21,175 bases of DNA from a virus (IMGVR_UViG_3300030117_008015:1-21175), one strand, 5' to 3'. Numbered from the stretch's first letter, positions 1,835 to 17,613 are shown. The notes: generated by a model from the sequence alone, not told the origin. A program made the numbers and translations.

Positions 1835-1836
1835 GC

Positions 1837-1865: not shown

Positions 1866-1874
1866 CTTATTCCT

Positions 1875-2258
1875 ATGGCGGCAAAAAGGAAGCGCAAGCC
1901 CACTTTAAATCAATTCATTATAAATAAATTTTTATTAGATCCAAAATCCATTTGGAAAAATAAAGGTTTAGTCGCCAGAGAAATGAAAATTACTAAAACT
2001 CTTATAGAAAAGTATCCTTTAGAAGTTTTTTGGCGAGCCCTTCCTTTAAAGTTCGCTATGGAGAGTTTGGTGTGGTTTATTTCTGCCCAAGGTTTAGCTT
2101 ACCTTAAATTAGAGTTCGCTAAATTTTCTCTTGACTTACCTGCTCCGAAACGATATGATGTACCGGATGTAAAGTTGGGTGAAGATAAAAAAGTTTCATT
2201 AAACACTAAAACTATTAAAGATTTCATTAAATATGGCAGCAAAAAAGAAAACAGTTGA
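1875..2258 (+). CDS. Conserved-looking unknown basic protein upstream of the recombinase
   Basis: The product is a 127-aa protein of no recognised family. It opens with a strongly basic stretch (AAKRKRKP), which suggests nucleic-acid contact. A mostly helical middle follows (about residues 10-90) with one hydrophobic run around residues 65-80 (FAMESLVWFISAQGLAYL) that could be a buried or amphipathic helix rather than a true membrane span. The tail is Lys-rich (YGSKKENS). It is the first gene behind a promoter-like sequence and overlaps the UvsX/RecA gene by 26 nt, so the two are probably translationally coupled. A role as an accessory factor to the recombinase is inference from position only. 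No Shine-Dalgarno precedes the ATG. Confidence 0.75.
   Translation: MAAKRKRKPTLNQFIINKFLLDPKSIWKNKGLVAREMKITKTLIEKYPLEVFWRALPLKFAMESLVWFISAQGLAYLKLEFAKFSLDLPAPKRYDVPDVKLGEDKKVSLNTKTIKDFIKYGSKKENS
2131..2159 (+). promoter_or_regulatory. Possible internal promoter ahead of the UvsX/RecA gene
   Basis: TTGACT (2131-2136), a 17-base spacer, then TATGAT (2154-2159, 5 of 6 to consensus). It lies inside the 1875-2258 gene, about 75 bases before the recombinase start at 2233, so this transcript would have a leader of roughly 65 nt. As it sits in coding DNA it may be chance. Confidence 0.3.
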
Positions 2259-3324
2259 AGGTTTTACTCCTCTACAACAAATAGAGAGTTATCTAAAAGA
2301 TCACAAAGACGAGCATTTTAATTTTGAACAAGAGCCTCATTACATTGTTTCCAGCGGCAGTTTACTTCTAGACATAGAAATGTCTGGCGGGATTCGCCCC
2401 TCCATTATTCGTGCTTCGGGAGTTTCTGAAGGCGGTAAAACCTCCTGCGCCTTATCTTTTGCTAAAAATTTCCAAGAAAGCGTAGAAAATAGTATGGTGG
2501 TTTACATCAAGTCTGAGGGAAGGCTTTCTCCAGAGATGTTGGAGAGGTCAGGACTTGATATTTCTCCTGAGAAGCTGTTTATTTATAAAAGTAATATTTT
2601 TGAAAGTGTGCTTCAGTTGATGAGAGAGTTAATTATGAACAATCCAACTGAATGTAAATACTTTTTCATTATTGATTCAATGGATGCGATGGTTCCTAAA
2701 AAAGATTTAGATCGCTCTTTTGAAGAGTCAGACAAAGTAGCAGGAGGCTCGGTTTTGAGTTCTAACTTCTTGAAGAAGATGGCTTTAAGTCTTTCTACCA
2801 AGGGTCATATCTGCTTTATGATTTCTCAAGTAAGGAGTAAAGTTAGTGTGAATCAGTACGAAAAAACTGACCCTAAACTGACTAATGCCTCCGGTGGAAA
2901 CGCGTTACTTCATTATTCTGATTGGATTCTTGAATTTCAACCAAGATATGGTGGTGACACAATCCCGCCGAAAGACGACAAGCCTGAAGGGCATTACTGT
3001 AAAATAATTTTTAGGAAAACTTCTAACGAAAAAACTGGAACCATAGTTCGATACCCAATTAAGTACGGAAGGACAGGGGGTCGAAGTGTTTGGGTTGAAT
3101 ACGAAGTATTGTTGATGCTTTTGCAATGGAAAATGGCAGAAGCTAAAGGGGCTTGGATTGTAATAGCCGATGAACTTATTGAAGAACTTAAAGCTGCTGG
3201 CCTCGAAATGAACTCAAAACATCAAGGAATTGATAATTTTAGGAAATATCTTGAGAGCGAGCCAGAGATTTGTAAGTATTTATTTGCAAAATTCAAAAAC
3301 ACCTTACAAGGAATTGGTAAGTGA
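2233..3324 (+). CDS. uvsX: UvsX/RecA-family recombinase
   Basis: A 363-aa RecA-fold strand-exchange ATPase, within the normal size of RecA (about 350) and UvsX (about 390). The Walker A box GVSEGGKT is at residues 63-70. E95 in the KSEG motif sits where RecA has its catalytic Glu. Walker B is FFIIDS, with D148. The L2/DNA-binding region begins at SQVRSK (198-203) and leads to ASGGNALLHYSDWILEF, the GG-ALKFYAS equivalent. An unusual stretch, WVEYEVLLMLLQWKMAEAKG (about 288-307), precedes a helical C-terminus. By family, it forms filaments on ssDNA and drives homologous pairing for recombination-dependent replication and repair. It overlaps the upstream gene by 26 nt and the nuclease gene by 4 nt. 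RecA of host type is the alternative, but the divergent sequence favours a phage UvsX-like protein. Confidence 0.92.
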   Translation: MAAKKKTVEGFTPLQQIESYLKDHKDEHFNFEQEPHYIVSSGSLLLDIEMSGGIRPSIIRASGVSEGGKTSCALSFAKNFQESVENSMVVYIKSEGRLSPEMLERSGLDISPEKLFIYKSNIFESVLQLMRELIMNNPTECKYFFIIDSMDAMVPKKDLDRSFEESDKVAGGSVLSSNFLKKMALSLSTKGHICFMISQVRSKVSVNQYEKTDPKLTNASGGNALLHYSDWILEFQPRYGGDTIPPKDDKPEGHYCKIIFRKTSNEKTGTIVRYPIKYGRTGGRSVWVEYEVLLMLLQWKMAEAKGAWIVIADELIEELKAAGLEMNSKHQGIDNFRKYLESEPEICKYLFAKFKNTLQGIGK

Positions 3325-3737: not shown

Positions 3738-3751
3738 AATAGTGTAATAAT
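3721..3751 (+). promoter_or_regulatory. Weak promoter-like hexamers before the acidic protein/tubulin genes
   Basis: TTGAGA (3721-3726) is followed by an AT-rich -10-like stretch (TAATAA 3745-3750, or AATAAT 3746-3751 preceded by TG at 3743-3744). ATG 3756 is 4-5 nt beyond, so any transcript would be leaderless. The spacing of 18-19 is not ideal. Confidence 0.25.
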
Positions 3752-3755
3752 AAAT

Positions 3756-4031: not shown

Positions 4032-5292
4032 CACGAGTATAAACGATTATTATCCCACAGAAGGAACACCTCCTTCTCTCACTGCTGGAGAGGCTCCTAA
4101 TTCCACCCCAGCACCAATAGAAGAGCCTGTAGTAACTCCTGTACCGCAGGAATCTCAAGCTCCAGCCGCAGTAGAAGACTTGGGTATTGATTTACCCGAT
4201 ATTCCTTTGCCAGATGATGAACCGATTGAGGATGATGTAAAAGATCAATTTGATGACGCTGCTTTTAATTTTGCCATTGTTGGAGTAGGGCAAGGTGGTT
4301 CTCGTTTGGCTGAATCATTTTGGAATTTGGGATACCGCAGGGTAGGAATTATAAATACTGCTCAACAAGATTTATCTTTAATCAATGTTCCTGAAGAAAA
4401 CAAACTGCTTATAGGTGATGGTGGAGCAGGAAAGAATCCCGATGCCGCAGATGAAGTTTTCCGTACTCGTTATGAAGATATTCTAGATTTTTTAAAGAAA
4501 ACTTTTGGCACTAAATACGAAAGAGTTTTGGTTTGTGCGGGTGCAGGTGGAGGCACAGGTGCAGGTGGTGTAGCGCGTGTTTTAGAGATTAGCCACGACC
4601 TTAATCAATCTTTGGGCAAGGAAACTAAAGATACTGATGCAAAAGTGGGATGCGTGCTGGCTCTTCCTACTCGAGGAGAGGGTATAAAAGTTCAAGAAAA
4701 CGCGAAGAAAACTGTAAATAAAGTTGTAGGTCTTCAAAAGGCAGGAGTAGTCTCGCCTTTAATTATATTAGATAATGAAAAGATTAAGCAATTGTATCCA
4801 AAATTAAGCGTTAATCAGTTTTGGAGCACAGCTAATAATAGTATTTGCTCTATCTTTCACCTCTTTAACAAAATATCCGCTAAAGAATCAGCATATACAA
4901 CTTTTGATAAAGCAGATTTAGACACCATCTTTTCGTCAGGCATAATCATGTTTGGAGCTACTCCAATTAAAGATACTACTGATACTGGAATTTCTTATGC
5001 AGTCAGAGACAACTTAAGAAAAAATATTCTAGCTGGGGTAGATGCAGCTACTGGAAACATAGCGGCTTGCATTATTATTGGCGATAAAGAGTCTCTTGAT
5101 AATATCCCTCAATCCAGCCTTGAGTATGGGTTTGAGCAACTCAGCCGCATGATGGGAGCTAATTCAACTGTTCATCGCGGAATTTATGCTGGCGCCAAGA
5201 AAGGTTTGGCTGTATATACAGCTATCGGCGGTTTGAAGGCCCCCGATAATTTATTTGATTTTTTCTTCGAAGCTAATCGTTCATACACGTAG
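4024..5292 (+). CDS. FtsZ/tubulin-superfamily GTPase
   Basis: This 422-aa protein carries the full tubulin/FtsZ nucleotide-binding core. There is a glycine-rich first loop GVGQGGS (residues 87-93), NTAQQDL (111-117) where FtsZ has NTDxQxL, and GGAGKNPDAA (133-142) resembling GAGxxPxxG. The G-box GAGGGTGAGG lies at 173-182. A T7-loop-like segment TFDKADLDT holds D295 and D298, which align with the hydrolysis-activating Asp residues of NxDxADV (Asn replaced by Thr). Residues 1-80 form an acidic, Pro-rich, probably disordered extension that ordinary FtsZ lacks. The chain ends soon after the core (FFFEANRSYT) without an FtsZ C-terminal peptide. It probably polymerises with GTP. Whether it positions phage DNA like PhuZ, segregates DNA like TubZ or interferes with division is open. 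ATG 4024 is preferred to TTG 4015 because GAAGAAG precedes it. Confidence 0.85.
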   Translation: MSDTSINDYYPTEGTPPSLTAGEAPNSTPAPIEEPVVTPVPQESQAPAAVEDLGIDLPDIPLPDDEPIEDDVKDQFDDAAFNFAIVGVGQGGSRLAESFWNLGYRRVGIINTAQQDLSLINVPEENKLLIGDGGAGKNPDAADEVFRTRYEDILDFLKKTFGTKYERVLVCAGAGGGTGAGGVARVLEISHDLNQSLGKETKDTDAKVGCVLALPTRGEGIKVQENAKKTVNKVVGLQKAGVVSPLIILDNEKIKQLYPKLSVNQFWSTANNSICSIFHLFNKISAKESAYTTFDKADLDTIFSSGIIMFGATPIKDTTDTGISYAVRDNLRKNILAGVDAATGNIAACIIIGDKESLDNIPQSSLEYGFEQLSRMMGANSTVHRGIYAGAKKGLAVYTAIGGLKAPDNLFDFFFEANRSYT

Positions 5293-5297
5293 ACTAA

Positions 5298-6800
5298 ATG
5301 CCCATATATTCTAATCAAGTCGAGACCCACGTCCTCGGCGGACTGTTGAAGCATCCCCACGTATTTCCTGAGATTGACTCTTTTGTTAATGTAGGAGATT
5401 TTTATAATGAAGTTCATCAAAGTGTATTTTGCGTTTTAAGAGACGCAGTTCTCAATGGCGAGAAGGTAGATCGCGTTCTAGTTGGTACTAAAATATCCAA
5501 TCTTGGCATCTCTTACAAAGATGAGATCGATATTTTTGATTATTTAAAAGCGCTAACAGTAACAGCCATAACTCCCGAAGCAGTTGTAGAGGCTTGTAAA
5601 GAGTTAGTTAAAGTAAGGGTTCGGCGGGAGATATATGAAACTACTGAACGTATGAAAGAGTATGTTTCTAAAAACCCCAATGATGATTTGGACTCAATCA
5701 TTTCCCATACGGATTCTATTTATGGTGATAAAATTTCTAGTTACTCCTTTAACGACGATCCAGAAAATGTATTTGACTCTTTAGAATACGAGATTGAGGA
5801 GAGGGGAAATAATCCTCGTGAAGATACAGGACTTACTACTCCATATAAAGAGTTCAATAGATTATATGGGGGCTTGAGGAATGGTAACATTTACGCTATT
5901 GTTTCTAGACCAGCTCAAGGTAAAACCACTTTTATAAATGATTTATGTTTGGGAACCGCAGTAGCTAATGATGTACCAGTATTGGTGCTTGATACAGAGA
6001 TGACGACTACGGAAATACAGTTCCGTATGGCTGCTGCAAACACAGGGGTTCCGCTTTGGTACTTGGAAACGGGAAAATGGAGAAACGACAAAGATATGGA
6101 AAGTAAAGTTAGAAACTATTTCTCTAATTTGAAGAAACATAAGTATTTTCATTATCACGTTAGGAATAAAACCATCGACGAAGTATGCGCCCTAATTAGA
6201 AGATGGCACATGAAATATGTAGGTAGGGGTAATGATTGTGTAATTGCTTACGATTACGTGAAGCTTACTGGGGAGAAAGTAGATAAGAACTGGGCTGAAC
6301 ACCAAGCCATTGGTGAAAAAATAGATAAGTTAAAAAGGGTAGCTGAAGAAATCAATGCACCTCTGGTAACTGCGATGCAGATGAATCGCCAAGGAGAAAG
6401 TTTCAATCGTAACTCAAGTAGCCTTGTTGATGACAGTTCTGCTATTTCTTTATCTGATAGATTACAATGGTTCGCTACGTTTGTAGCTATCTTTCGCCGA
6501 AAGACTCTTGATGAAATCTCCTTGGATGGAGATAATTTTGGAACCCACAAATTAATCCCACTTAAAACTAGATTTCAAGGTAGGGATGCGGCTGGCCACC
6601 AAGACTTGATGAGGCGTAGAGTTGTGGAAACTATCAATGGGCGAGAGACTGAAAGCGAAAAGTTTGTAAATAATTTCTTAAATTTTAGGGTGGAGAACTT
6701 TAAAGTTAGAGAAGAGGGGTCTTTGGAGGATATAATAAGGTTCGAGAACCAGTCTTTCAATATTCAGCAAGGTGATCAGCAGGGGGATTTCGAGCTTTGA
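5298..6800 (+). CDS. dnaB: Replicative DNA helicase, DnaB family
   Basis: A 500-aa protein, close to DnaB (about 470). Residues 4-105 form the helical N-terminal domain that contacts primase (VETHVLGGLLKHP at the start). The RecA-like motor follows: Walker A SRPAQGKTT (203-211), DTEM (232-235) with the catalytic Glu, Walker B VIAYD (D319), QMNR (361-364) as the sensor, then a lysine/arginine-rich end (KTRFQGRDA) resembling the arginine-finger region. By family it is the 5'-3' hexameric helicase at the fork that recruits DnaG. The gene begins five bases after the tubulin-like gene, without a clear ribosome site. Its stop overlaps the primase start (TTGA), matching the helicase-primase pairing seen in many phages. 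The C-terminal 30 residues (Gln-rich, ...GDQQGDFEL) look disordered. Confidence 0.92.
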   Translation: MPIYSNQVETHVLGGLLKHPHVFPEIDSFVNVGDFYNEVHQSVFCVLRDAVLNGEKVDRVLVGTKISNLGISYKDEIDIFDYLKALTVTAITPEAVVEACKELVKVRVRREIYETTERMKEYVSKNPNDDLDSIISHTDSIYGDKISSYSFNDDPENVFDSLEYEIEERGNNPREDTGLTTPYKEFNRLYGGLRNGNIYAIVSRPAQGKTTFINDLCLGTAVANDVPVLVLDTEMTTTEIQFRMAAANTGVPLWYLETGKWRNDKDMESKVRNYFSNLKKHKYFHYHVRNKTIDEVCALIRRWHMKYVGRGNDCVIAYDYVKLTGEKVDKNWAEHQAIGEKIDKLKRVAEEINAPLVTAMQMNRQGESFNRNSSSLVDDSSAISLSDRLQWFATFVAIFRRKTLDEISLDGDNFGTHKLIPLKTRFQGRDAAGHQDLMRRRVVETINGRETESEKFVNNFLNFRVENFKVREEGSLEDIIRFENQSFNIQQGDQQGDFEL

Positions 6801-7693
6801 CACACGATTTAAAATCTATTCTAACTGAGATAGGGTACAAACTTCACGACAGAGGCAAAGAATATCGTAGTCGTGCTATTTATCGTGATTCAGACAACGA
6901 CACAGTTCTTTCAATCAAAAAAGATACTGGCCGCTGGATAGATTTCAAAGAGCAGCGCTTTGGGACTTTAGAAGAGTTAATCAAAATAACTCTAAATCTA
7001 AAAGACATATCTGAAGCTCGCCAATATTTAAATAGGGAGTTCAATTACCAACCAGCTAAAGTTGAAAAAGAAACGCTAAAAACCCCTACCACCTTTAGTT
7101 CAAAAAATTTAGATTTTATCATGCCAGAATACAAGTACTGGAATGATAGAGGTGTTTCCACACCCACCTTAAAAAGTTTCCAAAGTGGGACAATGAAGTC
7201 TGGTAAAATGGAGGGTAGATATGTTTTCCCCATTTTCGACAGGGACGACAAAATAGTGGGTATGGCAGGAAGAGCTCTCGACAATGAGAAGAAACCTAAA
7301 TGGAAGTTGGTCGGTGAGAAAAAGCTTTGGGCGTACCCATTAAAATTAAATTTACCAATTTTGCAAAAAGAGAAGAAGATAATTTTAGTTGAAAGTATTG
7401 GCGATATGTTGGCTCTTTGGGAAGCTGGTGTTAAAAATACTATCGTCACTTTTGGATTAAAGGTTACTGCTAAAATAAAGCAAATGTTAATAGCTATTCG
7501 GCCAAATACAATTCATATAGCCTTTAATAATGACGCTAATCGAGCTGGTAATGAAGGAGCTAACAAAGCGTACACAGAACTAAGTAAGCATTTCGATACT
7601 GAACAACTTTTTATTTCACTGCCCACTCACAATGATTTTGGGGAAATGAGTAGAAGTGACATCCTGTTATGGAAAAGTCAAAACAACCTGTAA
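6797..7693 (+). CDS. DnaG-like primase with TOPRIM domain, no zinc cysteines
   Basis: A 298-aa primase-type protein. The N-terminal 80 residues resemble the CHC2 zinc-binding module (YRSRAIYRDSDNDTVLSI, TGRWIDF), but the metal-binding Cys/His residues are absent. A linker and core segment follow (110-190, GRYVFPIFDRDDKIVGMAGRAL). The TOPRIM domain has LVESIGDMLALWEAG (197-211), with catalytic E199, and FNNDANRAG (243-251), where most primases have a D-x-D. The first Asp is Asn here. HND (278-280) takes the place of the KD(P/V)N motif. The usual full DnaG (about 600 aa) also has a helicase-binding domain, missing here. TTG start 6797 follows AGGGGG (6781-6786) and overlaps the helicase stop. 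It should lay RNA primers with the adjacent DnaB. A topoisomerase-like or other TOPRIM role is less likely. Confidence 0.8.
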   Translation: MTHDLKSILTEIGYKLHDRGKEYRSRAIYRDSDNDTVLSIKKDTGRWIDFKEQRFGTLEELIKITLNLKDISEARQYLNREFNYQPAKVEKETLKTPTTFSSKNLDFIMPEYKYWNDRGVSTPTLKSFQSGTMKSGKMEGRYVFPIFDRDDKIVGMAGRALDNEKKPKWKLVGEKKLWAYPLKLNLPILQKEKKIILVESIGDMLALWEAGVKNTIVTFGLKVTAKIKQMLIAIRPNTIHIAFNNDANRAGNEGANKAYTELSKHFDTEQLFISLPTHNDFGEMSRSDILLWKSQNNL

Positions 7694-8661
7694 AGGAAAG
7701 AATACTTTCCGCTTCTCGTTTAAAGACCTTGGAAACTTGTTCATGGTCTTATTGGTGCAATTACCACTTAAAACTCCCTCAGAAACAGAATGAGGGCGCA
7801 TTAAGAGGAACGGTATGCCATCTAGTGTTTGAAATGCTTGTGAAAAAGAAGCACAAAAAACATTACAACAAGGTTCTAAAAGCCAACAGTATCGAAGGTA
7901 GTCCCGCTATTCATCGCATGGTTATGAAGCACTTAACTCAAATGGAAAAGAGCTTTGATTTACCCATGACTAATCAAGAAAACACAGAATTGGTAGATGA
8001 CATGATAATTGTGGGTTTAAATTGTGACTTTTTTGGCCGAGGAGGAAAGGTTGATAAACCAGAGTTGGAGTTTTTGTTAGATAGTAAAGACCCAAAATAT
8101 AAAATTAGAGGTTTCATTGATAAGCCCATCGTTTATAAAAAGGGTAAAAAAATAAAAATTGTAGATTACAAAAGTAGCAAATATAAATTTCGCGGCGAAG
8201 AGTTGCATTCAAACGTACAAGCCATGGTTTATACTTTAGCCGCTCAAAAAGAGTGGGAGGGTTATGAACCTACTGTAGAATTTCAGTTTTTAAGGCATCC
8301 TCGCAGCCCATTGCAGCAACTTCAATTTAATAAAGAGCAGTTAAGGGGTCTTGAGTATTACCTCGCTCATTCTTTTCATATCGTCAATAACTTTACCGAA
8401 GAAACCGCAGTTACCAACTACGCGGCTGATAAAAAGAAAGATGCTTGGTTATGTAAGATAGGTAAGTGGAGATGCCCCTACATTGACCCTTATGATTATT
8501 TCGTCGTTGTCAATGAGCAAAAAGAAGAAATAAAAAAATCTTTCAAGAAGGAAGAGCTTCAAGACTCACTTGAAGAAGATCAAAAGATAGAAAAACGTTC
8601 ATACGAAGGATGTCCGAGGCACAAAACTAATTCTGAAGATATACTTGACATGTTTTCTTGA
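7669..8661 (+). CDS. RecB/Cas4-like PD-(D/E)XK exonuclease with probable Fe-S cluster
   Basis: A 330-aa protein of the PDDEXK_1 (RecB/AddB/Cas4) group. It opens with SASRLKTLETCSWSYW, the S-x-S-x-L-x-x-(F/L)-x-x-C motif. The nuclease set follows: H51 in RGTVCHLVFE, D151 in RGFIDKP, D166-Y-K168 in KIVDYKSS, and Q184...Y188 in SNVQAMVY. The cysteines C24, C262, C269 and C315 (ETC, WLCK, WRCPY, EGCPRH) are placed as in family members that bind a 4Fe-4S cluster. By family it degrades or trims DNA ends with metal ions. It starts inside the primase gene (25-nt overlap) and its end carries the polymerase-operon promoter, which puts it within the replication module. A role in end-processing for recombination or in host DNA degradation is inference. 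Confidence 0.8.
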   Translation: MEKSKQPVKERILSASRLKTLETCSWSYWCNYHLKLPQKQNEGALRGTVCHLVFEMLVKKKHKKHYNKVLKANSIEGSPAIHRMVMKHLTQMEKSFDLPMTNQENTELVDDMIIVGLNCDFFGRGGKVDKPELEFLLDSKDPKYKIRGFIDKPIVYKKGKKIKIVDYKSSKYKFRGEELHSNVQAMVYTLAAQKEWEGYEPTVEFQFLRHPRSPLQQLQFNKEQLRGLEYYLAHSFHIVNNFTEETAVTNYAADKKKDAWLCKIGKWRCPYIDPYDYFVVVNEQKEEIKKSFKKEELQDSLEEDQKIEKRSYEGCPRHKTNSEDILDMFS

Positions 8662-8673
8662 GTCTGTTACAAT
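8645..8673 (+). promoter_or_regulatory. Strong sigma70-type promoter for the split polymerase operon
   Basis: TTGACA (8645-8650, perfect) then exactly 17 bases then TACAAT (8668-8673, 5 of 6). It straddles the end of the nuclease gene. Transcription would begin around 8680, one or two bases before ATG 8682, giving an essentially leaderless message. It is the best promoter match in the window. Confidence 0.65.
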
Positions 8674-8681
8674 GCACGGAT

Positions 8682-9500
8682 ATGGACGGTATTGTACCTC
8701 TTTTTAAAAGTCACTACAGCTTAGGGAAGTCGATTCTGACCCTGTCTCTGCCAGATGCAGAATATGACTCGGAAGGCACAAAAGACACTTCGGATTCCAT
8801 TTTTGAGATAGCTTTAGATAGATTTCATCATAATGATCCCGGTGCGTCAGATTTGTTTTTAGTTGATGATTGTATGAGTGGGTTTTTAGAGGCTTATACT
8901 AACACTGAAGAAATCAATAAAGCCCCCTACTCCAAAAAACTTAAATTAATATTTGGGCTACGTTTGACTTTTTGTCCAGATATGAATGATAAATCTGAAG
9001 AAGGCAGGAAGGACTCTTATAAAAATATAATTTTTGTTAATAACGTACAAGGGTACAAACAGTTGATAAAAATCTGGACTACTGCTGCTCAAGATGGGTT
9101 CTATTATGAACCCCGAATTGATTTTAAAACACTAAAGGAGTTCTGGACAAAAGACCTACTTTTAGGCATTCCTTTTTATGACTCTTTTTTGCATCGTAAT
9201 AATTTCACTGTCTCTAGTTGTATCCCCGATTTCTCATACGTGAACAAACCAGTATTTTTTATTGAAGATAATGATACTTTAATAGACAGCCTTTTGGCAG
9301 ATAAAGTCCGAGAGTATTGCAAAGATAAATACGATGTTCAAAAAAGTAAGAGTATTTACTACAAAAATGATGAAGACTTTGATTCTTACCTCACTTTTAA
9401 ATGCATAAATAAAAGGACTACGGTAGAAAAGCCTAATTTTGATGGAATGTGTTCTAATAATTTTAGTTACGAGAGTTACAGGAGGTTAGTTAATGGATAA
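8682..9500 (+). CDS. DNA polymerase III alpha, separate PHP domain
   Basis: A 272-aa protein that matches only the N-terminal PHP domain of DnaE. PLFKSHYSLGKS (6-17) corresponds to the LHxHSxYS opening. LFLVDDCMSGFLEAY (58-72) aligns with ALTDHxxxxGxxEF, LIFGLRLTF (89-97) with PIIGxE, and NVQGYKQLI...PRIDFKTL (121-151) with NxxGYxNL...PRID. Metal ligands are lost: HxH reads L-x-K and the TDH His reads Asp. So this is likely a structural PHP, as in E. coli DnaE, rather than a nuclease. ATG 8682 is chosen over TTG 8658 because the -10 hexamer and predicted start lie between them and because the homology begins there. The polymerase core is a separate gene at 10399, with an exonuclease gene between. 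Confidence 0.8.
   Translation: MDGIVPLFKSHYSLGKSILTLSLPDAEYDSEGTKDTSDSIFEIALDRFHHNDPGASDLFLVDDCMSGFLEAYTNTEEINKAPYSKKLKLIFGLRLTFCPDMNDKSEEGRKDSYKNIIFVNNVQGYKQLIKIWTTAAQDGFYYEPRIDFKTLKEFWTKDLLLGIPFYDSFLHRNNFTVSSCIPDFSYVNKPVFFIEDNDTLIDSLLADKVREYCKDKYDVQKSKSIYYKNDEDFDSYLTFKCINKRTTVEKPNFDGMCSNNFSYESYRRLVNG
9480..9486 (+). promoter_or_regulatory. Consensus Shine-Dalgarno for the exonuclease gene
   Basis: AGGAGGT lies 6 bases before ATG 9493, inside the end of the PHP gene. It stands out because most genes here have no recognisable ribosome site, and it fixes the start of the exonuclease. Confidence 0.8.
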
Positions 9501-10182
9501 TCATTTATTAAGATTTCAAGAGAAGCAGTTTCTGTTTTATGATTTTGAGACATTCAACTTAAATCTTCATGATTCATTTAATCTACCTTGGCAGATAGCT
9601 GTTAAGAGGGTTGAGGTTGTAAATAATGATGGTAAATTTTTCAACAAGGTACTCAAAGTACAAGAGGAAGATTCTAAAGCCGAAAGTAAGGACTTTTATT
9701 TAGAATGGGATTCTCCTCTCAAAATTGGTGAAGAAGCTAAACGTATAACTAGGTATTCTGAGAGGGTATTTCAAAATAGGAAAATGCCTCAAGAAGAAGT
9801 TTTTAAAATTATATACCCATTGATCGAAGAATGTGACTACATGGTTGGTCATAATATTTTGGGATTTGATATATATTTACTTAGGAATTGGTACAGGGCC
9901 AACGGCAAAAGCTATTCTCATTTAGCGGAAAAATCTTTAGATACTTTTGCTATTGCCAAAGCTGTAGCTCTAGATTATAAGTTTAATCCCTTGGACTGTT
10001 CTTTTTTAGAATTCCAAATGAAGATGATTAATGTACGCAAACGTGGCATAAAAACTAGCCTCAGTGCTTTAGGTAAACAGAACTCAATAGAGCATGATTA
10101 CTCGCGGCTTCATGACGCTAAAGTAGATATCGACTTAAACCACAAGGTTTGGGACAAATTAAAATATCAAATAGATTTATAA
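9493..10182 (+). CDS. DnaQ-like DEDDh 3'-5' exonuclease (proofreading subunit)
   Basis: A 229-aa protein with the complete DEDDh set. Exo I is FYDFET (D17, E19). Exo II is MVGHNILGFDIYLL, with D126. Exo III is LHDAKVDIDL, with H207 and D212. The family removes mismatched nucleotides for DNA polymerase III (epsilon). Between Exo I and Exo II it carries about 60 extra residues (30-95) compared with a minimal epsilon, with charged loops. The gene overlaps the PHP gene by 8 nt (ATGGATAA) and lies directly upstream of the polymerase core, so it is almost certainly the proofreading partner. It has no visible clamp-binding motif that I could be sure of. RNase T or oligoribonuclease activity is the less likely alternative. 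Confidence 0.88.
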   Translation: MDNHLLRFQEKQFLFYDFETFNLNLHDSFNLPWQIAVKRVEVVNNDGKFFNKVLKVQEEDSKAESKDFYLEWDSPLKIGEEAKRITRYSERVFQNRKMPQEEVFKIIYPLIEECDYMVGHNILGFDIYLLRNWYRANGKSYSHLAEKSLDTFAIAKAVALDYKFNPLDCSFLEFQMKMINVRKRGIKTSLSALGKQNSIEHDYSRLHDAKVDIDLNHKVWDKLKYQIDL

Positions 10183-10200
10183 AGAGTTATGTTTCAAATC

Positions 10201-10206
10201 TATAAT
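10201..10206 (+). promoter_or_regulatory. Perfect -10 hexamer before the small basic protein
   Basis: TATAAT at 10201-10206, five bases before ATG 10212, in the 29-base gap after the exonuclease gene. The sequence 17-18 bases upstream (around 10177-10183) is not a good -35. If used, the message for the polymerase core would be leaderless. Confidence 0.3.
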
Positions 10207-10211
10207 AGGTT

Positions 10212-10451
10212 ATGCCTAGTTTAGATTTTGTATACGACATAACCGAAAAGTTAGACGAAGAGAAAATTGATTATTTAGTACTTACTATACGCGACCACAA
10301 AAAAGAAAGCAAAGTAGATGTGTTTTTTAACGTGTGCCGTGAAAGTGAGCCAGTATTAGAAAAATCTTTAAACCAAATTATAGAAATAGTTAAAGAACGT
10401 GACGACACAGAGCCCCAAAAGCCAAAAAGAAGACGGCGCAAAAAAAGTTAA
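10212..10451 (+). CDS. Small protein with basic tail, embedded in the polymerase operon
   Basis: This 79-aa protein has an alternating strand/helix body (FVYDITEKLDEEKIDYLVLTI) and a C-terminus that is almost all basic (KPKRRRRKKS, residues 70-79). The body looks like a compact alpha/beta fold, and the tail suggests binding to DNA, RNA or the acidic parts of a partner. I recognise no family. It lies between the proofreading exonuclease and the polymerase core. Its last 53 bases are read in another frame as the start of the polymerase, so the two are translated in an overlapping manner. A polymerase-associated small subunit is a reasonable guess, not shown. The overlap includes a run of seven A (10440-10446), see findings. 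Confidence 0.7.
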   Translation: MPSLDFVYDITEKLDEEKIDYLVLTIRDHKKESKVDVFFNVCRESEPVLEKSLNQIIEIVKERDDTEPQKPKRRRRKKS

Positions 10452-13083
10452 GTTATCCGATTTGTTCAAGAAGATTACCCTAAAACTTCATGGGGTAAGG
10501 CTACCAAAATTTGAAATAGAAGAGAAGCACCTCAAAAAGTACGCTACTCAAATTGAAGCAGCCGCCAAGGGCGGTGAAGTTGATAATAAAGTATTTTTAC
10601 GAGCTGTTTGCGCTAAAAGGTTTTATGATCTAGGTCTACATAACAGACAGGATAAAAAAATGTATATAGATAGGATGGTCTATGAACTTGGCATCCTTGA
10701 AGAATTGGGATTTGTAGATTATATATTATTGGTTTGGTCTGTGGTTAACTACTGCAATGAGGAAGATATACCTTTGGGATTAGGCAGGGGCTCTGCTGCT
10801 GGTAGTATGGCTTTATATTTACTAGGTGTTACAGACATTGACCCACTTAAATACGAACTGTTTTTCGAGAGATTTGTTTCTAAGGCTAGAGCTAAAAAAT
10901 CGGTAGTAGACGGGGTTACCTACTTAGATGGATCGCTAATGTGCGATGTTGATATAGATGTTTGTTATTATAAACGTAAAGATGTTTTAACGCATTTAAG
11001 AGAAAAGTTCGGCGGTAAGACATCTAAAATACTTACCCTCAACACTTTAAGTGGCAAATTAGTCATGAAGGAGTGCGGTAAGGTTTTAGGCGGCAAGTCT
11101 GAAACAGAAATGAATGGCGTGTCGGCCTTAATACCTAAAGTTTTTGGTCAGGTCGAAGATATTGCGTCTGCTTGTGAAACTGTTCCCGACTTTGGTAAAT
11201 GGTGCAAGAGGAATCCTCGCGTCTTTAAAGTAGCTAACAAAATAAAGAACCTTAATAAAAATAAAGGTGTTCACCCTTCTGCTATTTTACTTTCTTACGA
11301 TAGAATGGACGAAAGTTGTCCTTGCGAATTAGATTCATCGAAGGAGCCAGTATCTTCTTTTGATATGGATTGGTCTTCGATATCTAATGTTAAATTGGAC
11401 GTGTTAGGGTTGAGAACTGTTTCTGTAGTTAATGAATGTTGTAAAATTATTAACAAAGATCGCCCTAAAGAGCAACACATCACTCTTAAAACAATGGCGG
11501 CTGATCTTGAAGAAGAAGCTATTTATGACAAATTAAATGAACAGATACAACTTGGATTAAGAATAGGTATTTTTCAAATAGAAGCTGATGTAGCTTACAA
11601 AGCCTGTTACAAGGTAAAACCTCAAAACTTAGAGCATTTAAGCGGGGTGCTTGCTTTAGCACGACCCGGGGCAATGGATTACATCAAGCAGTATGCGGAT
11701 TTTGTAAATACGGGTGTCCCTGAACCTACTCACCCAGTATTTGAGACCGTTCTGAATAAAACTGGTGGCATAGTTTTATATCAAGAGCAGATGATGAAGA
11801 TGGCTCACATGATTGGGTTTACCCTTGATGAAGCTGAGATTCTGCGCCGTATTGTGGGCAAGAAGAAGGTGTCAGAAGTAAAGAAATGGAAAAAGAAGAT
11901 TAGAGATAAAGTTAAGCAAAATAATTTTAAGGATCTCGTAGGTACTGAGGATGTAGGAGACTTTTTGTGGAAAGTGTTAGAGGCTTCTGCTAATTACTCC
12001 TATAATAAATCTCATTCGATTAGTTATGCAGCTTTGGCCGCTATTACTGCCAAATTAAAATCCCAACATCCTAAAGAGTTTTTCTTAGCACTATTGAGGA
12101 TGACGGCTTTTGAGCCTGACCCCTTAACTGAAGTAGGTAAAATTAATCAAGAACTTAGATACTTTAATATAAAGTTACTAGCTCCAAATTTACTCAAGTC
12201 CGAAATGGAGTATAGCATTGAAGGAGACAACATACGTTTCGGCCTAACAGCGATAAAAGGGATATCGGAAAAATCTATCGGAAAGCTAGAAGGCTTTAAA
12301 AACCAATACTCAAATAAGTTTGAGGTATTTCAAGGAGCTTCACAAGCTGGTCTTGGTATTGGTATATTATCAGGACTTATCCAAGCTGGAGCTTTGGAGG
12401 GTTGTCACGATGGGTCACGTAGTCGAACAGTGGCAGAAGCACAACTTTTCAATTTGTTGACTGATCGTGAAAAAAGTTATGTGTTTGAATTGGCCGAGGA
12501 GTTTTCATTCGACTTGATGAAAATAGTAAAGTATTTGCACGAAAAACATATTGATATAAAAGGAAAACCTGTGATAAAGGAGTCTCGAATACAAACTATT
12601 CGTAAGCATTTTGAACCTTACAAGCAGATATACTACAAAAACAAAACAAATGAAACTTTTGCAAATTGGTATTATGAAAATACTCTACTGGGATACACTC
12701 ACGGAAAAGCTTTGCGTGAAGTAAGCCCTGAGTATTCTCACTTAGATTCCATTAGTGAGTGCTTGATAGAGACAGAAGGTAGCCCTGTTTCATTTATAGG
12801 TACTGTCATAGACACTTTTAAATCTAAGAGTCAAAAAGGTACTCCATATTTCCGTATGGCCGTCAGAGACGAAACTGGGGAATGCACAGTGATGCTTTTT
12901 ACTCAGAAGAATAAGGACCACATTCAAGCCTGCAAGACTATGAATAACGGTGAGCTTCCGAGCAAGAAGTCTATCGTTATAGTCAAAGGAACGAAGAAGG
13001 ATGGTGATACTATTTTCGCCAACTTAATCAAAACTCAAGATCAACAAATTTATATGAAGTTAAGTGAAATAAAAGGGAAGTAA
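10399..13083 (+). CDS. dnaE: DNA polymerase III alpha catalytic core (DnaE without PHP)
   Basis: An 894-aa protein that matches DnaE from the palm onward. LGRGSAAGS lies at 128-136. CDVDIDV (182-188) matches PD(F/I)D(V/I)DF, which carries two catalytic Asp. KLDVLGLRT (332-340) gives the third, D334. IFQIEA...LARPGAMDYI (391-429) and LYQEQMMKMAHMIGFTLDEAEILRRIVGKKK (460-490) belong to the fingers. NYSYNKSHSISYA lies around 533-545. The helix-hairpin-helix FGLTAIKGIS is near 614, and an OB fold (VSFIGTV...PYFRMAVRDETG) near 798-830. The PHP domain is absent and encoded at 8682. Together the two have about the length of E. coli DnaE (1160 aa). GTG 10399 is the only reasonable start. The tau-binding end is short. 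It should be the phage replicase; few phages carry a C-family polymerase. Confidence 0.92.
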   Translation: MTTQSPKSQKEDGAKKVKLSDLFKKITLKLHGVRLPKFEIEEKHLKKYATQIEAAAKGGEVDNKVFLRAVCAKRFYDLGLHNRQDKKMYIDRMVYELGILEELGFVDYILLVWSVVNYCNEEDIPLGLGRGSAAGSMALYLLGVTDIDPLKYELFFERFVSKARAKKSVVDGVTYLDGSLMCDVDIDVCYYKRKDVLTHLREKFGGKTSKILTLNTLSGKLVMKECGKVLGGKSETEMNGVSALIPKVFGQVEDIASACETVPDFGKWCKRNPRVFKVANKIKNLNKNKGVHPSAILLSYDRMDESCPCELDSSKEPVSSFDMDWSSISNVKLDVLGLRTVSVVNECCKIINKDRPKEQHITLKTMAADLEEEAIYDKLNEQIQLGLRIGIFQIEADVAYKACYKVKPQNLEHLSGVLALARPGAMDYIKQYADFVNTGVPEPTHPVFETVLNKTGGIVLYQEQMMKMAHMIGFTLDEAEILRRIVGKKKVSEVKKWKKKIRDKVKQNNFKDLVGTEDVGDFLWKVLEASANYSYNKSHSISYAALAAITAKLKSQHPKEFFLALLRMTAFEPDPLTEVGKINQELRYFNIKLLAPNLLKSEMEYSIEGDNIRFGLTAIKGISEKSIGKLEGFKNQYSNKFEVFQGASQAGLGIGILSGLIQAGALEGCHDGSRSRTVAEAQLFNLLTDREKSYVFELAEEFSFDLMKIVKYLHEKHIDIKGKPVIKESRIQTIRKHFEPYKQIYYKNKTNETFANWYYENTLLGYTHGKALREVSPEYSHLDSISECLIETEGSPVSFIGTVIDTFKSKSQKGTPYFRMAVRDETGECTVMLFTQKNKDHIQACKTMNNGELPSKKSIVIVKGTKKDGDTIFANLIKTQDQQIYMKLSEIKGK

Positions 13084-13273: not shown

Positions 13274-13759
13274 ATGATAAAGTTTTTCAAGCCCAATCCT
13301 CGAGTTACCGGCAACGGTTGTTCTTTTTCCTACAACTCCAAGGATCAATCTTTCTGGATCAATTTTGTAAAACAGTCTTCATGGGAGAATGGTAAGGGTA
13401 AGTTTCAAGTTGGCCCCGATAAAAAAGCTAACGCAAAGTTTAGTGCCACCGAGATAGCTGGAATGATACAGGCTATAGACTCTAACAAGTCTATGAAGGA
13501 CTTAGGCTTAAACGGATATCATGGTTATGATGGAAATACCACTACTTACAATTTTGGCCCCTATATTAAAGACGGCAATCAAGTAGGGTTCTCTTTGGCA
13601 CTCAACCAGACTAAGGATGGCAATAAGAAGTCTTTTGTGATGGGTTTTACCTATCCAGAGGCTAGGTTACTTCGCGAATATCTCCTTACTGCACTAAATA
13701 AGAGCAACACCTACTCCATTGAAAATTCGTTTGGTGAGAAATCTGAAAAAGATTTTTAA
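13274..13759 (+). CDS. Possible ssDNA-binding protein (PC4/Whirly-like), function uncertain
   Basis: A 161-aa protein with a strand-rich pattern: CSFSYNSKDQSFWINFVKQSSW (16-37), then TTTYNFGPYI and QVGFSLALNQ (89-112), then SFVMGFTYPEARLLREYLLTAL (119-140), where the last part is a long amphipathic helix. This strand set followed by a helix is what one sees in PC4- or Whirly-like ssDNA-binding proteins, and I recall similar proteins in large aquatic phages without a firm function. It has no OB-fold SSB signature and no acidic SSB tail; it ends GEKSEKDF. Its place directly behind the polymerase fits a replication ssDNA-binding protein, which the window otherwise lacks. Treat this as inference. 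Confidence 0.7.
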   Translation: MIKFFKPNPRVTGNGCSFSYNSKDQSFWINFVKQSSWENGKGKFQVGPDKKANAKFSATEIAGMIQAIDSNKSMKDLGLNGYHGYDGNTTTYNFGPYIKDGNQVGFSLALNQTKDGNKKSFVMGFTYPEARLLREYLLTALNKSNTYSIENSFGEKSEKDF

Positions 13760-15684
13760 TGAAAAAAATATTATTTCAAACTGATTCTAGTTTAGCGAAA
13801 ACAGGGTTTGGCAGAAATGCTAAAGCTCTCCTTTCGTACCTTTATAAAACAAAAAAATATGAAATAGTGCAGTACTGTTGTGGTACTGACTATGCAAATT
13901 TAGCATTGCAAGCTACTCCATGGAAATCTGTGGGGACATTACCAAGTGACCCCAATGAGCGCCATCGGATTAGTCAAGATGCTGGTCAAGCTAGGATTGC
14001 AAGTTACGGTGGTTACCTCATTGACAAAGTTATGAATGAGGAAAAACCTGATTTCTATTTTGGTGTTCAAGATATATGGGGTACTGAATTTGCTATTGAT
14101 AAACCTTGGTTCAACAAGATTAACTCTGTCATTTGGACTACTTTGGATTCTCTGCCAATTTTACCGTCTGCTGTTAAAAATGCCCCCAAGATAAAAAATT
14201 ATTGGATTTGGAGTTCGTTTGCCACGAAAGAGCTTCATAGACTTGGGCACACTCATGTTAAAACGATGCACGGGTGTATTGAGACAGATTATTTTTACCC
14301 TCTGGAAGACGCTGAGAAGAAGAAGTTAAGGCAGCGGCACAACATAGAAGAGGACGCTTTTATAGTTGGTTTTGTGTTTAGGAATCAGCTTCGAAAATCT
14401 GTCCCTAATTTATTGGAAGGCTACGCAAAATGGAAGGAGCAAGAAAAACCTAAAAAGAAAACGTATTTACTTTTTCATACTCATTGGAAAGAAGGTTGGA
14501 ATATACATAAGCTTGCTGAGGAATACGGTATTGATAAGTCTGAGATACTCACAACTTACGTCTGTAAAAAGTGCGGCGATTATCAAGTGAAAGCTTACGA
14601 TGGTGAAGACAAGGATTGTCCTAGCTGCCTCTCTGAAAAAACTCAAGTTACTACTAGCGTGGGAGCAGGAGTAAGAGAAGATCAACTTAATGAAGTATAT
14701 AATTTAATGGACTACTATTGCCACCCATTTACAAGTGGTGGTCAGGAAATTCCAATTCAAGAAGCTAAATTAACGGGTCTAATAACTGGAGTTACAAATT
14801 ATAGCTGCGGAGAAGAAAGTTGCGAAGAAGGTTCAGGCTCTTTACCTTTAAGCTGGTCGGAATACAGGGAACACCAGACGGAGTTTAAAAAAGCTTCTAC
14901 TTGCCCTATCTCTATATCTACTAGCATAGATGTAGTTTACAATATGTCGGAAGAGGAGAGGAAAGAAGAGGGTAAAGTAGCTAGGCAATGGGCTATTGAT
15001 AATTTTTCAGTTGAGGTTATCGGTAAGAAATTCGAGGAGTTTATAGACAATACTGATTGTACCGATTATAAATTTGAAGACGAAGAGGATAAATCAACTA
15101 TTAAAAAGAATAACCCAGACGCTTTTATTCCTGCGATTGAAAATGATTCTGAATGGGTGTTGACTTTATACAAAGAAATACTTGCGACTGAAAACCATGT
15201 TAATGATGAAGGTTATAAAACTTGGATGCATTCTTTAGCAAACAAAGTTCCGCGCGAACAGATAGAAGATTATTTTAGAAAAGTCGCTCGAGATCATAAC
15301 GCAAAATATTTTCCCGAGAAAGTAGAGGATAACTTAGATAAAGATGATGAAGGCAGAAGGATTGTTTATGTCATGCCTGAGAGTAGTGTTGATGTATTTT
15401 TATCCACCTCTTTACTGAAGTCTATAAAAGAAAAATATCCAGATTATAACCTGTACTTCGCTACTAAACCACAATATTTTCATATACTTCAAGGCAATCC
15501 GTATATACATAAAGTTATTCCTTACAACGCCCAATTTGATAATGCTTTATACCTTGAAGGGATGGGTGATCAAAAAGGCTTTTTCGAGATAGCTTTTACC
15601 CCTCATATAACAACTCAACGGGCTAACAATTACATTCATAATTGCAAAGATATAATAGATAAGAAAAGATTATGCACATTTTAG
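13759..15684 (+). CDS. Multidomain glycosyltransferase: GT4-like + DUF4214-like + N-half of GT9
   Basis: 641 aa. Residues 1-430 form a GT-B glycosyltransferase of GT4 type: TGFGRNAKALL (15-25) in the nucleotide-facing loop, VGFVFRNQLRKSVPNLLEGY (203-222) opening the second Rossmann domain, and HPFTSGGQEIPIQEA (322-336) as the donor-binding E-x-E region. Inside the second domain is a zinc ribbon, C269-x2-C272...C287-x2-C290. Residues 460-515 (SEWVLTLYKEIL...GYKTWMHSL) resemble DUF4214, often linked to surface glycans. Residues 533-635 (RRIVYVMPESSVDVFLSTSLLKSIKEKYP) look like the N-terminal Rossmann half of a GT9/heptosyltransferase. That fold is cut by the stop at 15682, and its second half is the next ORF in another frame. 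The start overlaps the preceding stop by one base (TAATG). Sugar and acceptor are unknown. Confidence 0.85.
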   Translation: MKKILFQTDSSLAKTGFGRNAKALLSYLYKTKKYEIVQYCCGTDYANLALQATPWKSVGTLPSDPNERHRISQDAGQARIASYGGYLIDKVMNEEKPDFYFGVQDIWGTEFAIDKPWFNKINSVIWTTLDSLPILPSAVKNAPKIKNYWIWSSFATKELHRLGHTHVKTMHGCIETDYFYPLEDAEKKKLRQRHNIEEDAFIVGFVFRNQLRKSVPNLLEGYAKWKEQEKPKKKTYLLFHTHWKEGWNIHKLAEEYGIDKSEILTTYVCKKCGDYQVKAYDGEDKDCPSCLSEKTQVTTSVGAGVREDQLNEVYNLMDYYCHPFTSGGQEIPIQEAKLTGLITGVTNYSCGEESCEEGSGSLPLSWSEYREHQTEFKKASTCPISISTSIDVVYNMSEEERKEEGKVARQWAIDNFSVEVIGKKFEEFIDNTDCTDYKFEDEEDKSTIKKNNPDAFIPAIENDSEWVLTLYKEILATENHVNDEGYKTWMHSLANKVPREQIEDYFRKVARDHNAKYFPEKVEDNLDKDDEGRRIVYVMPESSVDVFLSTSLLKSIKEKYPDYNLYFATKPQYFHILQGNPYIHKVIPYNAQFDNALYLEGMGDQKGFFEIAFTPHITTQRANNYIHNCKDIIDKKRLCTF

Positions 15685-16856
15685 AATCCTACGCACTGCA
15701 AAATGATTTAAAGATAGATAAACCTTTAATCTATGAAAAATATTTTCCCTTAACTATAGATAAATTCATAACGCTTGATACGTCTTCGTTGGGTACGAAA
15801 GCTTTGAACTATGATCACTGGCAGTTGGTAGTAGATCTAATTTACCCAAAGCTAAAAGAGTTGGACATATATATAGTCCAGTTAGGCGAGAAAACAGACC
15901 AACTTCTGCAAAATTGTTATTCAACGATGGGTCAATGCAACTTTAATCAAAAAGCGTATGTGATTAGTAAAAGTCTAGCTCATATATCTACAAATAATGA
16001 GAGTTGTCATATAGCTTCCCATTACAATAAAAAATCTGTAGTGGTGTTTTCGAATAATTGCTATACTGGCCAGTTTAAACCTTATTGGACAGATGAAGAT
16101 AAGGTCTGTATTGTTGAGCCACCTAAAGGTAGTGTTCGTCCTTCTTACAATCCTAACGAAGAACCGAAATCTATAAATACTATCGCGCCCGAAGAAATAG
16201 CTTCTAAAATTTTAGCGTTAGTCGGAGTTCATACTTTTTCTCCTGAGTTAAAAACAGTTAAGATCGGTAAGTCCTTTTATAATTCTCGGATAGATTCTGA
16301 CCTAACTCATTTATTGGACGCTAATAAATTAAAAGTTGCTTCGTTAATAGTTCGTATGGATTTTAATTTTAATGAAGCTAATTTAGTTAAGCAGTTGGAA
16401 GCGTGTCCTTGTTCTGTCATAACTTCCAAACCTATAAGTGATGAGATTTTAAATAAATATCACAAAAAAATTGTAGAGCTAGTTTACTATATAGAAGATG
16501 ACCATAGTCCTGAATTTATCAGAAAGATAAAGCAGAAATCTATAAATTACCTTTTACGAACTCGAAAAGAAGGTAAAGAAATAAATGATTTAAAGTTAGA
16601 TTACTTTGATTATGGCCTCATACAACCTATAAAGGCTAAATCTCGAGATGATTTTGAAGAGCTCAAGGGTAAAAATAAATTATTTTATAAATCTAATTAT
16701 TTTATTGTTCATGGTAACAAGTTTTATCCTAGCACCGCAGCTTTCTTAAATAAGGAGCAAGGTTCTCCAAATATGAAGCACGAAATTCACCCAGTTATTG
16801 ATACTCCACTTTTCTGGGAAGAAGAAGAACATTTTCAATTTTTGGCAAAAAAGTAG
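15672..16856 (+). CDS. C-terminal half of GT9 (heptosyltransferase-like) plus unknown domain
   Basis: 394 aa. Residues 1-185 look like the second Rossmann domain of a GT9 enzyme. They open with a helix (MHILESYALQNDLKI), then DTSSLGTKALNYDHWQLVVDLI, then HISTNNESCHIASHYNKKSVVVFS (107-130). The last segment aligns with the GT9 motif (G)xDSGxxHxAxxxxxPxVxLF and ends with QFKPYW. The first domain of a GT9 is missing from this ORF but present at the end of the preceding one, in the other frame. ATG 15672 starts 13 nt before that stop. Residues 190-394 form an unknown domain (LKVASLIVRMDFN, CPCSVITSKPISDE, YYIEDDHS) that looks alpha/beta. Either a two-subunit GT-B enzyme, a frameshifted gene or programmed slippage would explain it. 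Confidence 0.8.
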   Translation: MHILESYALQNDLKIDKPLIYEKYFPLTIDKFITLDTSSLGTKALNYDHWQLVVDLIYPKLKELDIYIVQLGEKTDQLLQNCYSTMGQCNFNQKAYVISKSLAHISTNNESCHIASHYNKKSVVVFSNNCYTGQFKPYWTDEDKVCIVEPPKGSVRPSYNPNEEPKSINTIAPEEIASKILALVGVHTFSPELKTVKIGKSFYNSRIDSDLTHLLDANKLKVASLIVRMDFNFNEANLVKQLEACPCSVITSKPISDEILNKYHKKIVELVYYIEDDHSPEFIRKIKQKSINYLLRTRKEGKEINDLKLDYFDYGLIQPIKAKSRDDFEELKGKNKLFYKSNYFIVHGNKFYPSTAAFLNKEQGSPNMKHEIHPVIDTPLFWEEEEHFQFLAKK

Positions 16857-16896: not shown

Positions 16897-17613
16897 ATGG
16901 GAACTACAGTGATAAATAAACCTCCGGTTACTTTCAAACGTAATCAATACGGATTACTCGAAGACAAAAACGTAAAGTATGAGTTTAATGATGATGGAAC
17001 AGTAAACTGGCGTAAAATGATCAAGCCAGAGTTCTTGGTTGCTAATAGAGACCGTACTGCTGAGACTGATATTTCAAAACTCGAAGATAATGAACTAATT
17101 ATTTTGCTTGGTGGGTTGAAGGATTTAGCTAACGTAAGAGGCTATCATTCAGTGACTTACAAAATCCATGAATCTTCTCCTGAGTATGTTTGTGCTTCTT
17201 GCAGTATAGTTTGGATTGGTAATTATGAAACTGAAAATTCAGAATCAGTTTTATTTGAAGCGGTAGCAGATGCAGGACTTAAAAACACAGAAGGGTTTAG
17301 CCAAATGTATCTCGCAGCTATCGCAGAAAACAGGGCTTTTTGTCGTGCGGTGCGTAATTTTTTGCGAATCAACATCGTCGCTAAAGAAGAGTGCAAGAAT
17401 GTCAAAATTTCAAAACCAAGTCCCAACGTCAACGCTGCTTCTCCAGACATATTCTTATCTACCCTTATGAAGGAGAAGAATATAGATTTTGGAGCTATCA
17501 AAGCAAAAATGATCAAAGAAAGCGTCAAAGGGGCAGTAGAGTGGAATTCAGTCAAAGATATTCCTCGTTTGAAGATGTTTGAGCTGATTGAAAGAATGCA
17601 GAAAAAGAAATGA
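16897..17613 (+). CDS. Unknown phage protein, possibly a Rad52-like ssDNA annealing protein
   Basis: A 238-aa protein. The central block (about 68-165) has an ordered pattern: LGGLKDLANVRGYHSVTYKI, then strands VCASCSIVWIGNYETE, then a helix with AIAENRAFCRAVRNFLRINIV. This arrangement of a glycine turn, beta-hairpin and Arg-rich helix resembles the Rad52/Sak single-strand annealing group. A separate C-terminal helical domain (184-236) is similar in shape to the tail domains of phage annealing proteins. No motif settles it. The neighbours support a DNA role, since it overlaps a PD-(D/E)XK nuclease by 4 nt, as annealing protein/exonuclease pairs often do. It begins behind a promoter-like sequence and has no ribosome site. 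Confidence 0.7.
   Translation: MGTTVINKPPVTFKRNQYGLLEDKNVKYEFNDDGTVNWRKMIKPEFLVANRDRTAETDISKLEDNELIILLGGLKDLANVRGYHSVTYKIHESSPEYVCASCSIVWIGNYETENSESVLFEAVADAGLKNTEGFSQMYLAAIAENRAFCRAVRNFLRINIVAKEECKNVKISKPSPNVNAASPDIFLSTLMKEKNIDFGAIKAKMIKESVKGAVEWNSVKDIPRLKMFELIERMQKKK

What the first reader, a model, noticed from the sequence alone, without database searches (positions are those of the whole stretch)
8682..13083. DNA polymerase III alpha split into a PHP gene and a core gene, with a proofreading exonuclease gene between
The DnaE-type polymerase is cut exactly at the PHP/palm boundary. The PHP domain is 8682-9500, the palm-to-OB part 10399-13083. A DEDDh exonuclease and a 79-aa basic protein sit in between. 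The summed length is about that of E. coli DnaE, so nothing seems lost. In E. coli the epsilon exonuclease binds the PHP domain, so a PHP gene translationally coupled to the exonuclease gene (8-nt overlap, consensus ribosome site) reads as a PHP-exonuclease proofreading module separated from the polymerase. Phages with C-family polymerases are uncommon; this arrangement may be undescribed.
Basis: partly seen in the sequence, partly recalled or inferred. Interest (0 to 1): 0.75.

Follow-up and report, generated by a model that had tools for sequence, protein, structure and literature searches.

The report
Phage DNA polymerase in separate subunits
A large, uncultured group of tailed phages makes its bacterial-type replication polymerase as two separate proteins (a dead PHP domain and the polymerase core) plus a proofreading nuclease, an old and stable rearrangement that lets the long-debated role of the PHP domain be tested with natural parts.

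Summary
The split is real. PHP (8682-9500), a DEDDh exonuclease (9493-10182), a 79-aa protein (10212-10451) and a DnaE palm-to-OB core (10399-13083) are separate genes. It is not a break: 187 of 209 fetched IMG/VR loci keep all three main genes apart, 186 in the order PHP, EXO, CORE on one strand. No member is fused, the family is one clade (support 100/100), and the three genes are under strong purifying selection. The PHP model matches DnaE PHP domains in the PDB (E 9e-9), but its metal site is destroyed; the exonuclease and polymerase active sites are intact. The PHP/core junction carries no intein. Best reading: a heteromeric DNA polymerase III core, with PHP as a non-catalytic subunit in trans and proofreading by the DEDDh protein. 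'Nothing lost' is wrong: DnaE's C-terminal tau-binding domain is absent. The PHP/core split has independent cultured precedents (mycobacteriophage Aikoy, Microbacterium phage Potty). New variant of a known kind.

The parts
8682..9500 (+). PHP subunit gene (272 aa; in-frame TTG at 8658), catalytically dead PHP domain of DnaE
   Evidence: Pfam PHP 6.7e-8; fold match to DnaE PHP; relatives start at the same Met; ligand table
9493..10182 (+). DEDDh 3'-5' exonuclease gene (229 aa), 8-nt overlap with the PHP gene
   Evidence: RNase_T 1.4e-7; phrog_192 2.5e-14; D17, E19, D126, H207, D212 align with epsilon D12, E14, D103, H162, D167 and are invariant in 23 relatives
10212..10451 (+). 79-aa protein with a basic C-terminal tail, function unknown; its end overlaps the core start out of frame
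   Evidence: No family; homologues in 128 of 209 loci, 117 of them between EXO and CORE
10399..13083 (+). DnaE core gene (894 aa): palm, thumb, fingers, HhH, OB; no PHP, no C-terminal tau-binding domain, no intein
   Evidence: Pfam and PHROG; catalytic Asp D183, D185, D334 = E. coli D401, D403, D555, invariant in 22; fold match to DnaE
7669..8661 (+). PD-(D/E)XK (RecB/Cas4-like) nuclease, conserved upstream neighbour
   Evidence: PDDEXK_1 6.4e-20; same place in most loci
6797..7693 (+). DnaG-like primase, conserved neighbour
   Evidence: Toprim_2, DNAG_N
5298..6800 (+). DnaB-like helicase, replication module
   Evidence: DnaB_C 5.7e-26, phrog_19 5e-53
2233..3324 (+). RecA/UvsX-like recombinase, replication module
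   Evidence: RecA 4.7e-18, phrog_97 2.3e-32
13274..13759 (+). conserved downstream neighbour of the core, function unknown
   Evidence: Homologues in 49 of the first loci, downstream of CORE; no Pfam family

Best explanation
The locus encodes a heteromeric DNA polymerase III core of a large tailed phage. The alpha chain is made as two proteins: a catalytically dead PHP subunit, and a palm-to-OB core with an intact polymerase active site. A separate intact DEDDh exonuclease proofreads. Shown: domain identities, active-site states, separate genes fixed across the family, no intein at the junction. Inferred: PHP and core assemble without a covalent bond, PHP in its usual DnaE position as a structural subunit; the exonuclease serves this polymerase and docks mainly on the core (perhaps with the 79-aa protein) rather than on PHP by an epsilon-type tail; the phage uses the host's clamp or an unrecognised one.
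For: Domain identity. Fixed split: 186 loci with PHP, EXO, CORE in this order, no fused member; six of eight MAG contigs the same; one clade, 100/100. Purifying selection: median dN/dS 0.046 PHP, 0.029 EXO, 0.033 CORE. PHP ligands lost (reference HHDHEHCDH; family mostly L-K-D/E-gap-R-K-F-S-Y/F). DEDDh and polymerase Asp invariant. Loss of PHP catalysis goes with an epsilon-type exonuclease in bacteria, and PHP is a structural element of E. coli Pol III (PMC3666897). Among the cultured phages examined, Pbunavirus PS44, Escherichia phage Bas98 and Rhizobium phage N1_10 have a degenerate PHP and a DEDDh gene; Potty and Aikoy have an essentially intact PHP and none was detected. EXO divergence tracks CORE. 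No intein family on window PHP or core.
Against: No physical evidence of assembly; complexes could not be modelled. In one contig CORE lies about 10 kb from PHP. The PHP-CORE partial correlation (0.33) is modest, equal to CORE-primase (0.33). No conserved clamp-binding motif was seen in core or exonuclease, and no beta or gp45-type clamp in 12 large contigs, so replicase status rests on context. The RNase_T search missed known EXO genes in five of six family contigs, so its negatives are weak.
Confidence: 0.62

Rival explanations
1. One reading: PHP and the exonuclease form a stable proofreading module, held together as alpha-PHP and epsilon are in E. coli, that is separate from the polymerase.
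For: Overlapping genes and a good ribosome site in the window clade; in E. coli epsilon binds PHP (PMC3666897).
Against: The exonuclease lacks the PHP-binding tail; PHP and EXO are not adjacent in 75 of 129 distinct loci; PHP-EXO partial correlation 0.18 against 0.62 for EXO-CORE.
Confidence: 0.15
2. The free PHP protein is a relic or has taken a job outside the polymerase, and the core works without any PHP.
For: All metal ligands lost; PHP evolves faster than the core (mean p-distance 0.456 against 0.353); minimal PHP-less alpha modules are reported in other jumbo phages (PMC7824862).
Against: PHP is kept next to the other replication genes in 186 loci with dN/dS 0.046, and keeps the PHP fold.
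Confidence: 0.17
3. Artefact: a sequencing or assembly break, a frameshift, or parts rejoined by trans-splicing.
For: An A7 run at the 79-aa/core overlap; split inteins do exist elsewhere in this family's core.
Against: A whole exonuclease gene lies between the parts in 186 loci; a 99%-identical contig has the same layout; no intein hit on window PHP or core; the core has its own start codon in relatives.
Confidence: 0.01
4. The PHP protein is itself the metal-dependent proofreading nuclease.
For: PHP domains of some C-family polymerases are associated with Zn-dependent proofreading activity (PMC3919608).
Against: None of the nine ligands is kept, one acidic position apart, in any of 23 relatives.
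Confidence: 0.03

Closest known systems
E. coli DNA polymerase III core (DnaE alpha, DnaQ epsilon)
   Same: DnaE-type palm to OB with the same catalytic Asp triad; catalytically degenerate PHP; separate DEDDh exonuclease
   Different: PHP is a separate gene; the exonuclease lacks epsilon's C-terminal tail; alpha lacks the C-terminal tau-binding domain; no conserved clamp-binding motif seen
Split DnaE of mycobacteriophage Aikoy (gp83 PHP, gp84, gp85) and Microbacterium phage Potty (gp55 PHP, gp56)
   Same: PHP and core are separate genes; in Aikoy with a small gene between
   Different: They lie within a clade of actinophages that otherwise have fused DnaE, far from this family; PHP metal site essentially intact; no exonuclease gene between
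Pbunavirus (PS44) and Escherichia phage Bas98 DnaE plus exonuclease
   Same: DEDDh exonuclease gene beside a DnaE with degenerate PHP
   Different: PHP fused to the polymerase; distant in the tree
Minimal split PolIII alpha of group 2.2 jumbo phages (Iyer et al. 2021, PMC7824862)
   Same: PolIII alpha module in separate phage proteins expected to reassemble
   Different: That split is inside the catalytic core, genes far apart, no other PolIII domains, beside a B-family polymerase
Cyanobacterial split-intein DnaE (from general knowledge)
   Same: DnaE in two genes
   Different: Cut in the fingers and rejoined by trans-splicing; the cut here is at PHP/palm without intein
PolC of Firmicutes
   Same: Exonuclease and PHP closely associated; the exonuclease's best PDB match is a PolC-type exonuclease (2p1j)
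   Different: PolC is a single chain with the exonuclease inserted in PHP and a different domain order (PMC3919608)

Membership tests
DnaE-type PolIII alpha (C family) | Catalytic Asp triad (E. coli D401, D403, D555) | tested here: met
   D183, D185, D334, invariant in 22 relatives
DnaE-type PolIII alpha (C family) | PHP domain at the N-terminus of the same chain | tested here: not met
   Separate gene in every family locus where both are present
DnaE-type PolIII alpha (C family) | OB fold C-terminal to the HhH region | tested here: met
   Aligned with E. coli 965-1054; OB-fold matches
DnaE-type PolIII alpha (C family) | C-terminal tau-binding domain | tested here: not met
   E. coli beyond about 1072 is essentially unaligned
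DnaE-type PolIII alpha (C family) | Internal clamp-binding motif | tested here: inconclusive
   No conserved QxxLF-like motif by a simple pattern
DnaQ/epsilon proofreading subunit | DEDDh catalytic residues | tested here: met
   D17, E19, D126, H207, D212, invariant in 23
DnaQ/epsilon proofreading subunit | C-terminal PHP-binding tail | tested here: not met
   Proteins of 210-229 aa; the window's ends 17 residues after the last Asp, epsilon's 76
DnaQ/epsilon proofreading subunit | Proofreading activity on this polymerase | not testable with these tools
   Needs biochemistry
Catalytic PHP nuclease | HHDHEH(C/H)DH metal site (motif from PMC12926913) | tested here: not met
   Lost in all 23 family members
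Intein-split DnaE | Intein halves at the gene junction | tested here: not met
   No intein family on window PHP or core; positive in L047 and L153 core

The most novel reading that the evidence does not exclude
A C-family replicase of a new architecture: PHP is an obligatory or exchangeable subunit in trans, and the proofreading exonuclease docks on the polymerase core itself (perhaps through the 79-aa protein), not on PHP.
Probability: 0.35. Interest if true: 0.7.

Novelty: new variant of a known kind. Interest (0 to 1): 0.5.

Why it matters
A PHP domain is reported to be strictly conserved in bacterial replicative polymerases, but what it does when catalytically dead is unsettled (PMC3666897). 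Here evolution has released it as its own subunit and kept it under strong selection, so its contribution can be tested by adding or leaving out one natural protein. It also appears to separate three things tied together in E. coli: PHP, the exonuclease's docking tail and the tau-binding tail.

Tried and rejected
Programmed frameshift at the A7 run joining the 79-aa protein to the core: the core frame is +1 in the loci compared, but a start codon in the core frame is conserved, so independent initiation is enough. Trans-splicing at the PHP/core junction: no intein. Sequencing break: refuted. PHP as active nuclease: ligands lost. A weak clamp-loader hit in G002 is a RuvB-like AAA protein. Beta clamp (PF02768, PF02767) and gp45 clamp (PF09116): none in 12 contigs. 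Host assignment: only scattered MAG contigs of several phyla, probably misbinned phage contigs, so no host is claimed. Closest cultured phage: none; EXO has no tblastn match and the terminase only about 25% identity. Kazlauskas and Venclovas 2011 was not held, so an earlier mention there cannot be excluded. PHP-core-EXO complex modelling was not possible within the tools.

Full report
Observation. The four genes are present as described, with small corrections. Pfam finds PHP on 8658-9497, RNase_T on 9493-10179 and DNA_pol3_alpha, finger and HHH_6 on 10399-13080. The fused phage DnaE family phrog_405 matches PHP at profile positions 92-216 and the core at 315-1088, so the two genes are complementary parts of one enzyme. 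The model of 8682-9497 (pLDDT 80.8) matches the PHP part of Taq and E. coli DnaE and of the alpha-epsilon chimera over its whole length, E about 1e-8 to 1e-7. The core model matches DnaE structures.

Not a break. 187 of the loci hold separate PHP, EXO and CORE genes, 186 of them in the simple order PHP, EXO, CORE on one strand; the remaining one (L034) has an extra EXO piece. Some loci share a contig; 129 have distinct exonuclease genes. No family member is fused; only two distant loci, L057 and L058, have a fused DnaE. Eight more loci came from MAG contigs; in six, PHP, EXO and CORE have the same order with an unbroken core stretch, L212 has the core in two intein-bearing pieces, and L211 holds only the start of the core. 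In a maximum-likelihood tree the family is one clade with 100/100 support. Median dN/dS in close pairs is 0.046 for PHP, 0.029 for EXO and 0.033 for CORE, so PHP is not decaying.

Active sites. Against the PHP metal motif HHDHEHCDH the family reads mostly L-K-D/E-gap-R-K-F-S-Y/F: no ligand but one acidic position survives in any of 23 members. My E. coli row reads RHDFDHGDR, which agrees with R10, F44, D69, G134 and R203 named in PMC3666897. The exonuclease keeps all five DEDDh residues and the core all three catalytic Asp, invariant throughout.

What is missing. The exonuclease ends 17 residues after its last catalytic Asp; E. coli epsilon has 76 more, including the tail that binds PHP. The core has no counterpart of E. 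coli residues beyond about 1072, the tau-binding domain. No conserved clamp-binding motif was seen, and none of 12 large contigs has a recognisable beta or gp45-type clamp.

Who partners whom. PHP and EXO overlap or are adjacent (within 30 nt) in 54 of 129 distinct loci, including the window clade; in 75 there is more space, often another gene such as a cupin, a glycosyltransferase-like or a restriction-like protein. Partial correlations of divergence over 57 thinned loci, controlling for primase and nuclease, are EXO-CORE 0.62, PHP-CORE 0.33 and PHP-EXO 0.18; EXO-CORE exceeds PHP-EXO in all bootstraps. This is indirect and could partly reflect gene exchange, but it points to EXO working with the core.

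The small protein. Homologues of the 79-aa protein occur in 128 of 209 loci, 117 of them between EXO and CORE. Its basic tail is encoded where its gene overlaps the core start out of frame. The core start is conserved as ATG (GTG in the window), so no frameshift is needed. Its role is unknown.

Context. The neighbours form a replication module: RecA-like, tubulin-like, DnaB, primase, PD-(D/E)XK nuclease. Larger contigs (up to 178 kb) were sampled: one carries a terminase, a minor tail protein, ribonucleotide reductase and RIIA, so these are large tailed phages. No close cultured relative is in the phage collection.

Known precedents. Most cultured phages examined have fused DnaE. Mycobacteriophage Aikoy and Microbacterium phage Potty have separate PHP and core genes, confirmed by Pfam, with an essentially intact PHP site; they fall within a fused actinophage clade, so the split arose at least twice. 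Iyer et al. 2021 describe a different split of a minimal PolIII alpha in group 2.2 jumbo phages (PMC7824862). I found no paper describing a PHP/core split with an exonuclease between, but the paper library is incomplete.

Verdict. A real, ancient and widespread heteromeric form of the Pol III core: a new variant of a known kind. The separation of a dead but conserved PHP makes an open question testable. The PHP-exonuclease module is possible but is the less likely arrangement.

Noticed in passing
L047 7926-10982 (same contig as L093), L153 3717-6698, L212 10611-13595; L055 7950-10889: Intein in the fingers of the core at NYSFN(K/R)^...^SHS. Split into two genes in L047, L153 and L212, contiguous in L055. 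NCBIfam intein_Nterm and intein_Cterm pass cut-off in L047 and L153. Close to, but by my recollection not at, the cyanobacterial DnaE split-intein site; the window lacks it.
   Followed up: partly
window 4015-5292: Tubulin/FtsZ-like GTPase (Pfam 2.2e-11) beside the replication genes; also in 5 of 12 large related contigs.
   Followed up: partly
L250 (mycobacteriophage Aikoy) 1567-5163; L256 (Microbacterium phage Potty) 1749-6915: Cultured phages with separate PHP and core genes; Potty also has a third gene (543 aa) annotated DnaE-like without any Pfam match.
   Followed up: partly
L052 3280-4596, L039 1751-3067: PHP gene with a C-terminal extension of about 180 aa, and about 2.7 kb between EXO and CORE with no long gene on the coding strand.
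   Followed up: no
L094 3656-5046, L041 6935-7336, L076 8750-11047, L110 9359-12258, L154 8621-9526: Cargo genes (cupin, glycosyltransferase-like, radical SAM-like, restriction-like) inserted between PHP and EXO or EXO and CORE; several resemble genes that lie elsewhere in the window (18526-18870, 17610-18101).
   Followed up: no
L083 7000-9616: Core broken into two overlapping frames near the GRGSAAGS motif; probably a frameshift, cause not checked.
   Followed up: no
L211-L218: Family members on contigs binned as Lokiarchaeota, Woesebacteria, Verrucomicrobiales, Halobacteriovorax and Flavobacteriaceae MAGs; probably misbinned phage contigs, so host unknown.
   Followed up: partly
window 806-1834 and 13759-16856: GDP-mannose 4,6-dehydratase and glycosyltransferase-like genes flank the replication module.
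   Followed up: no
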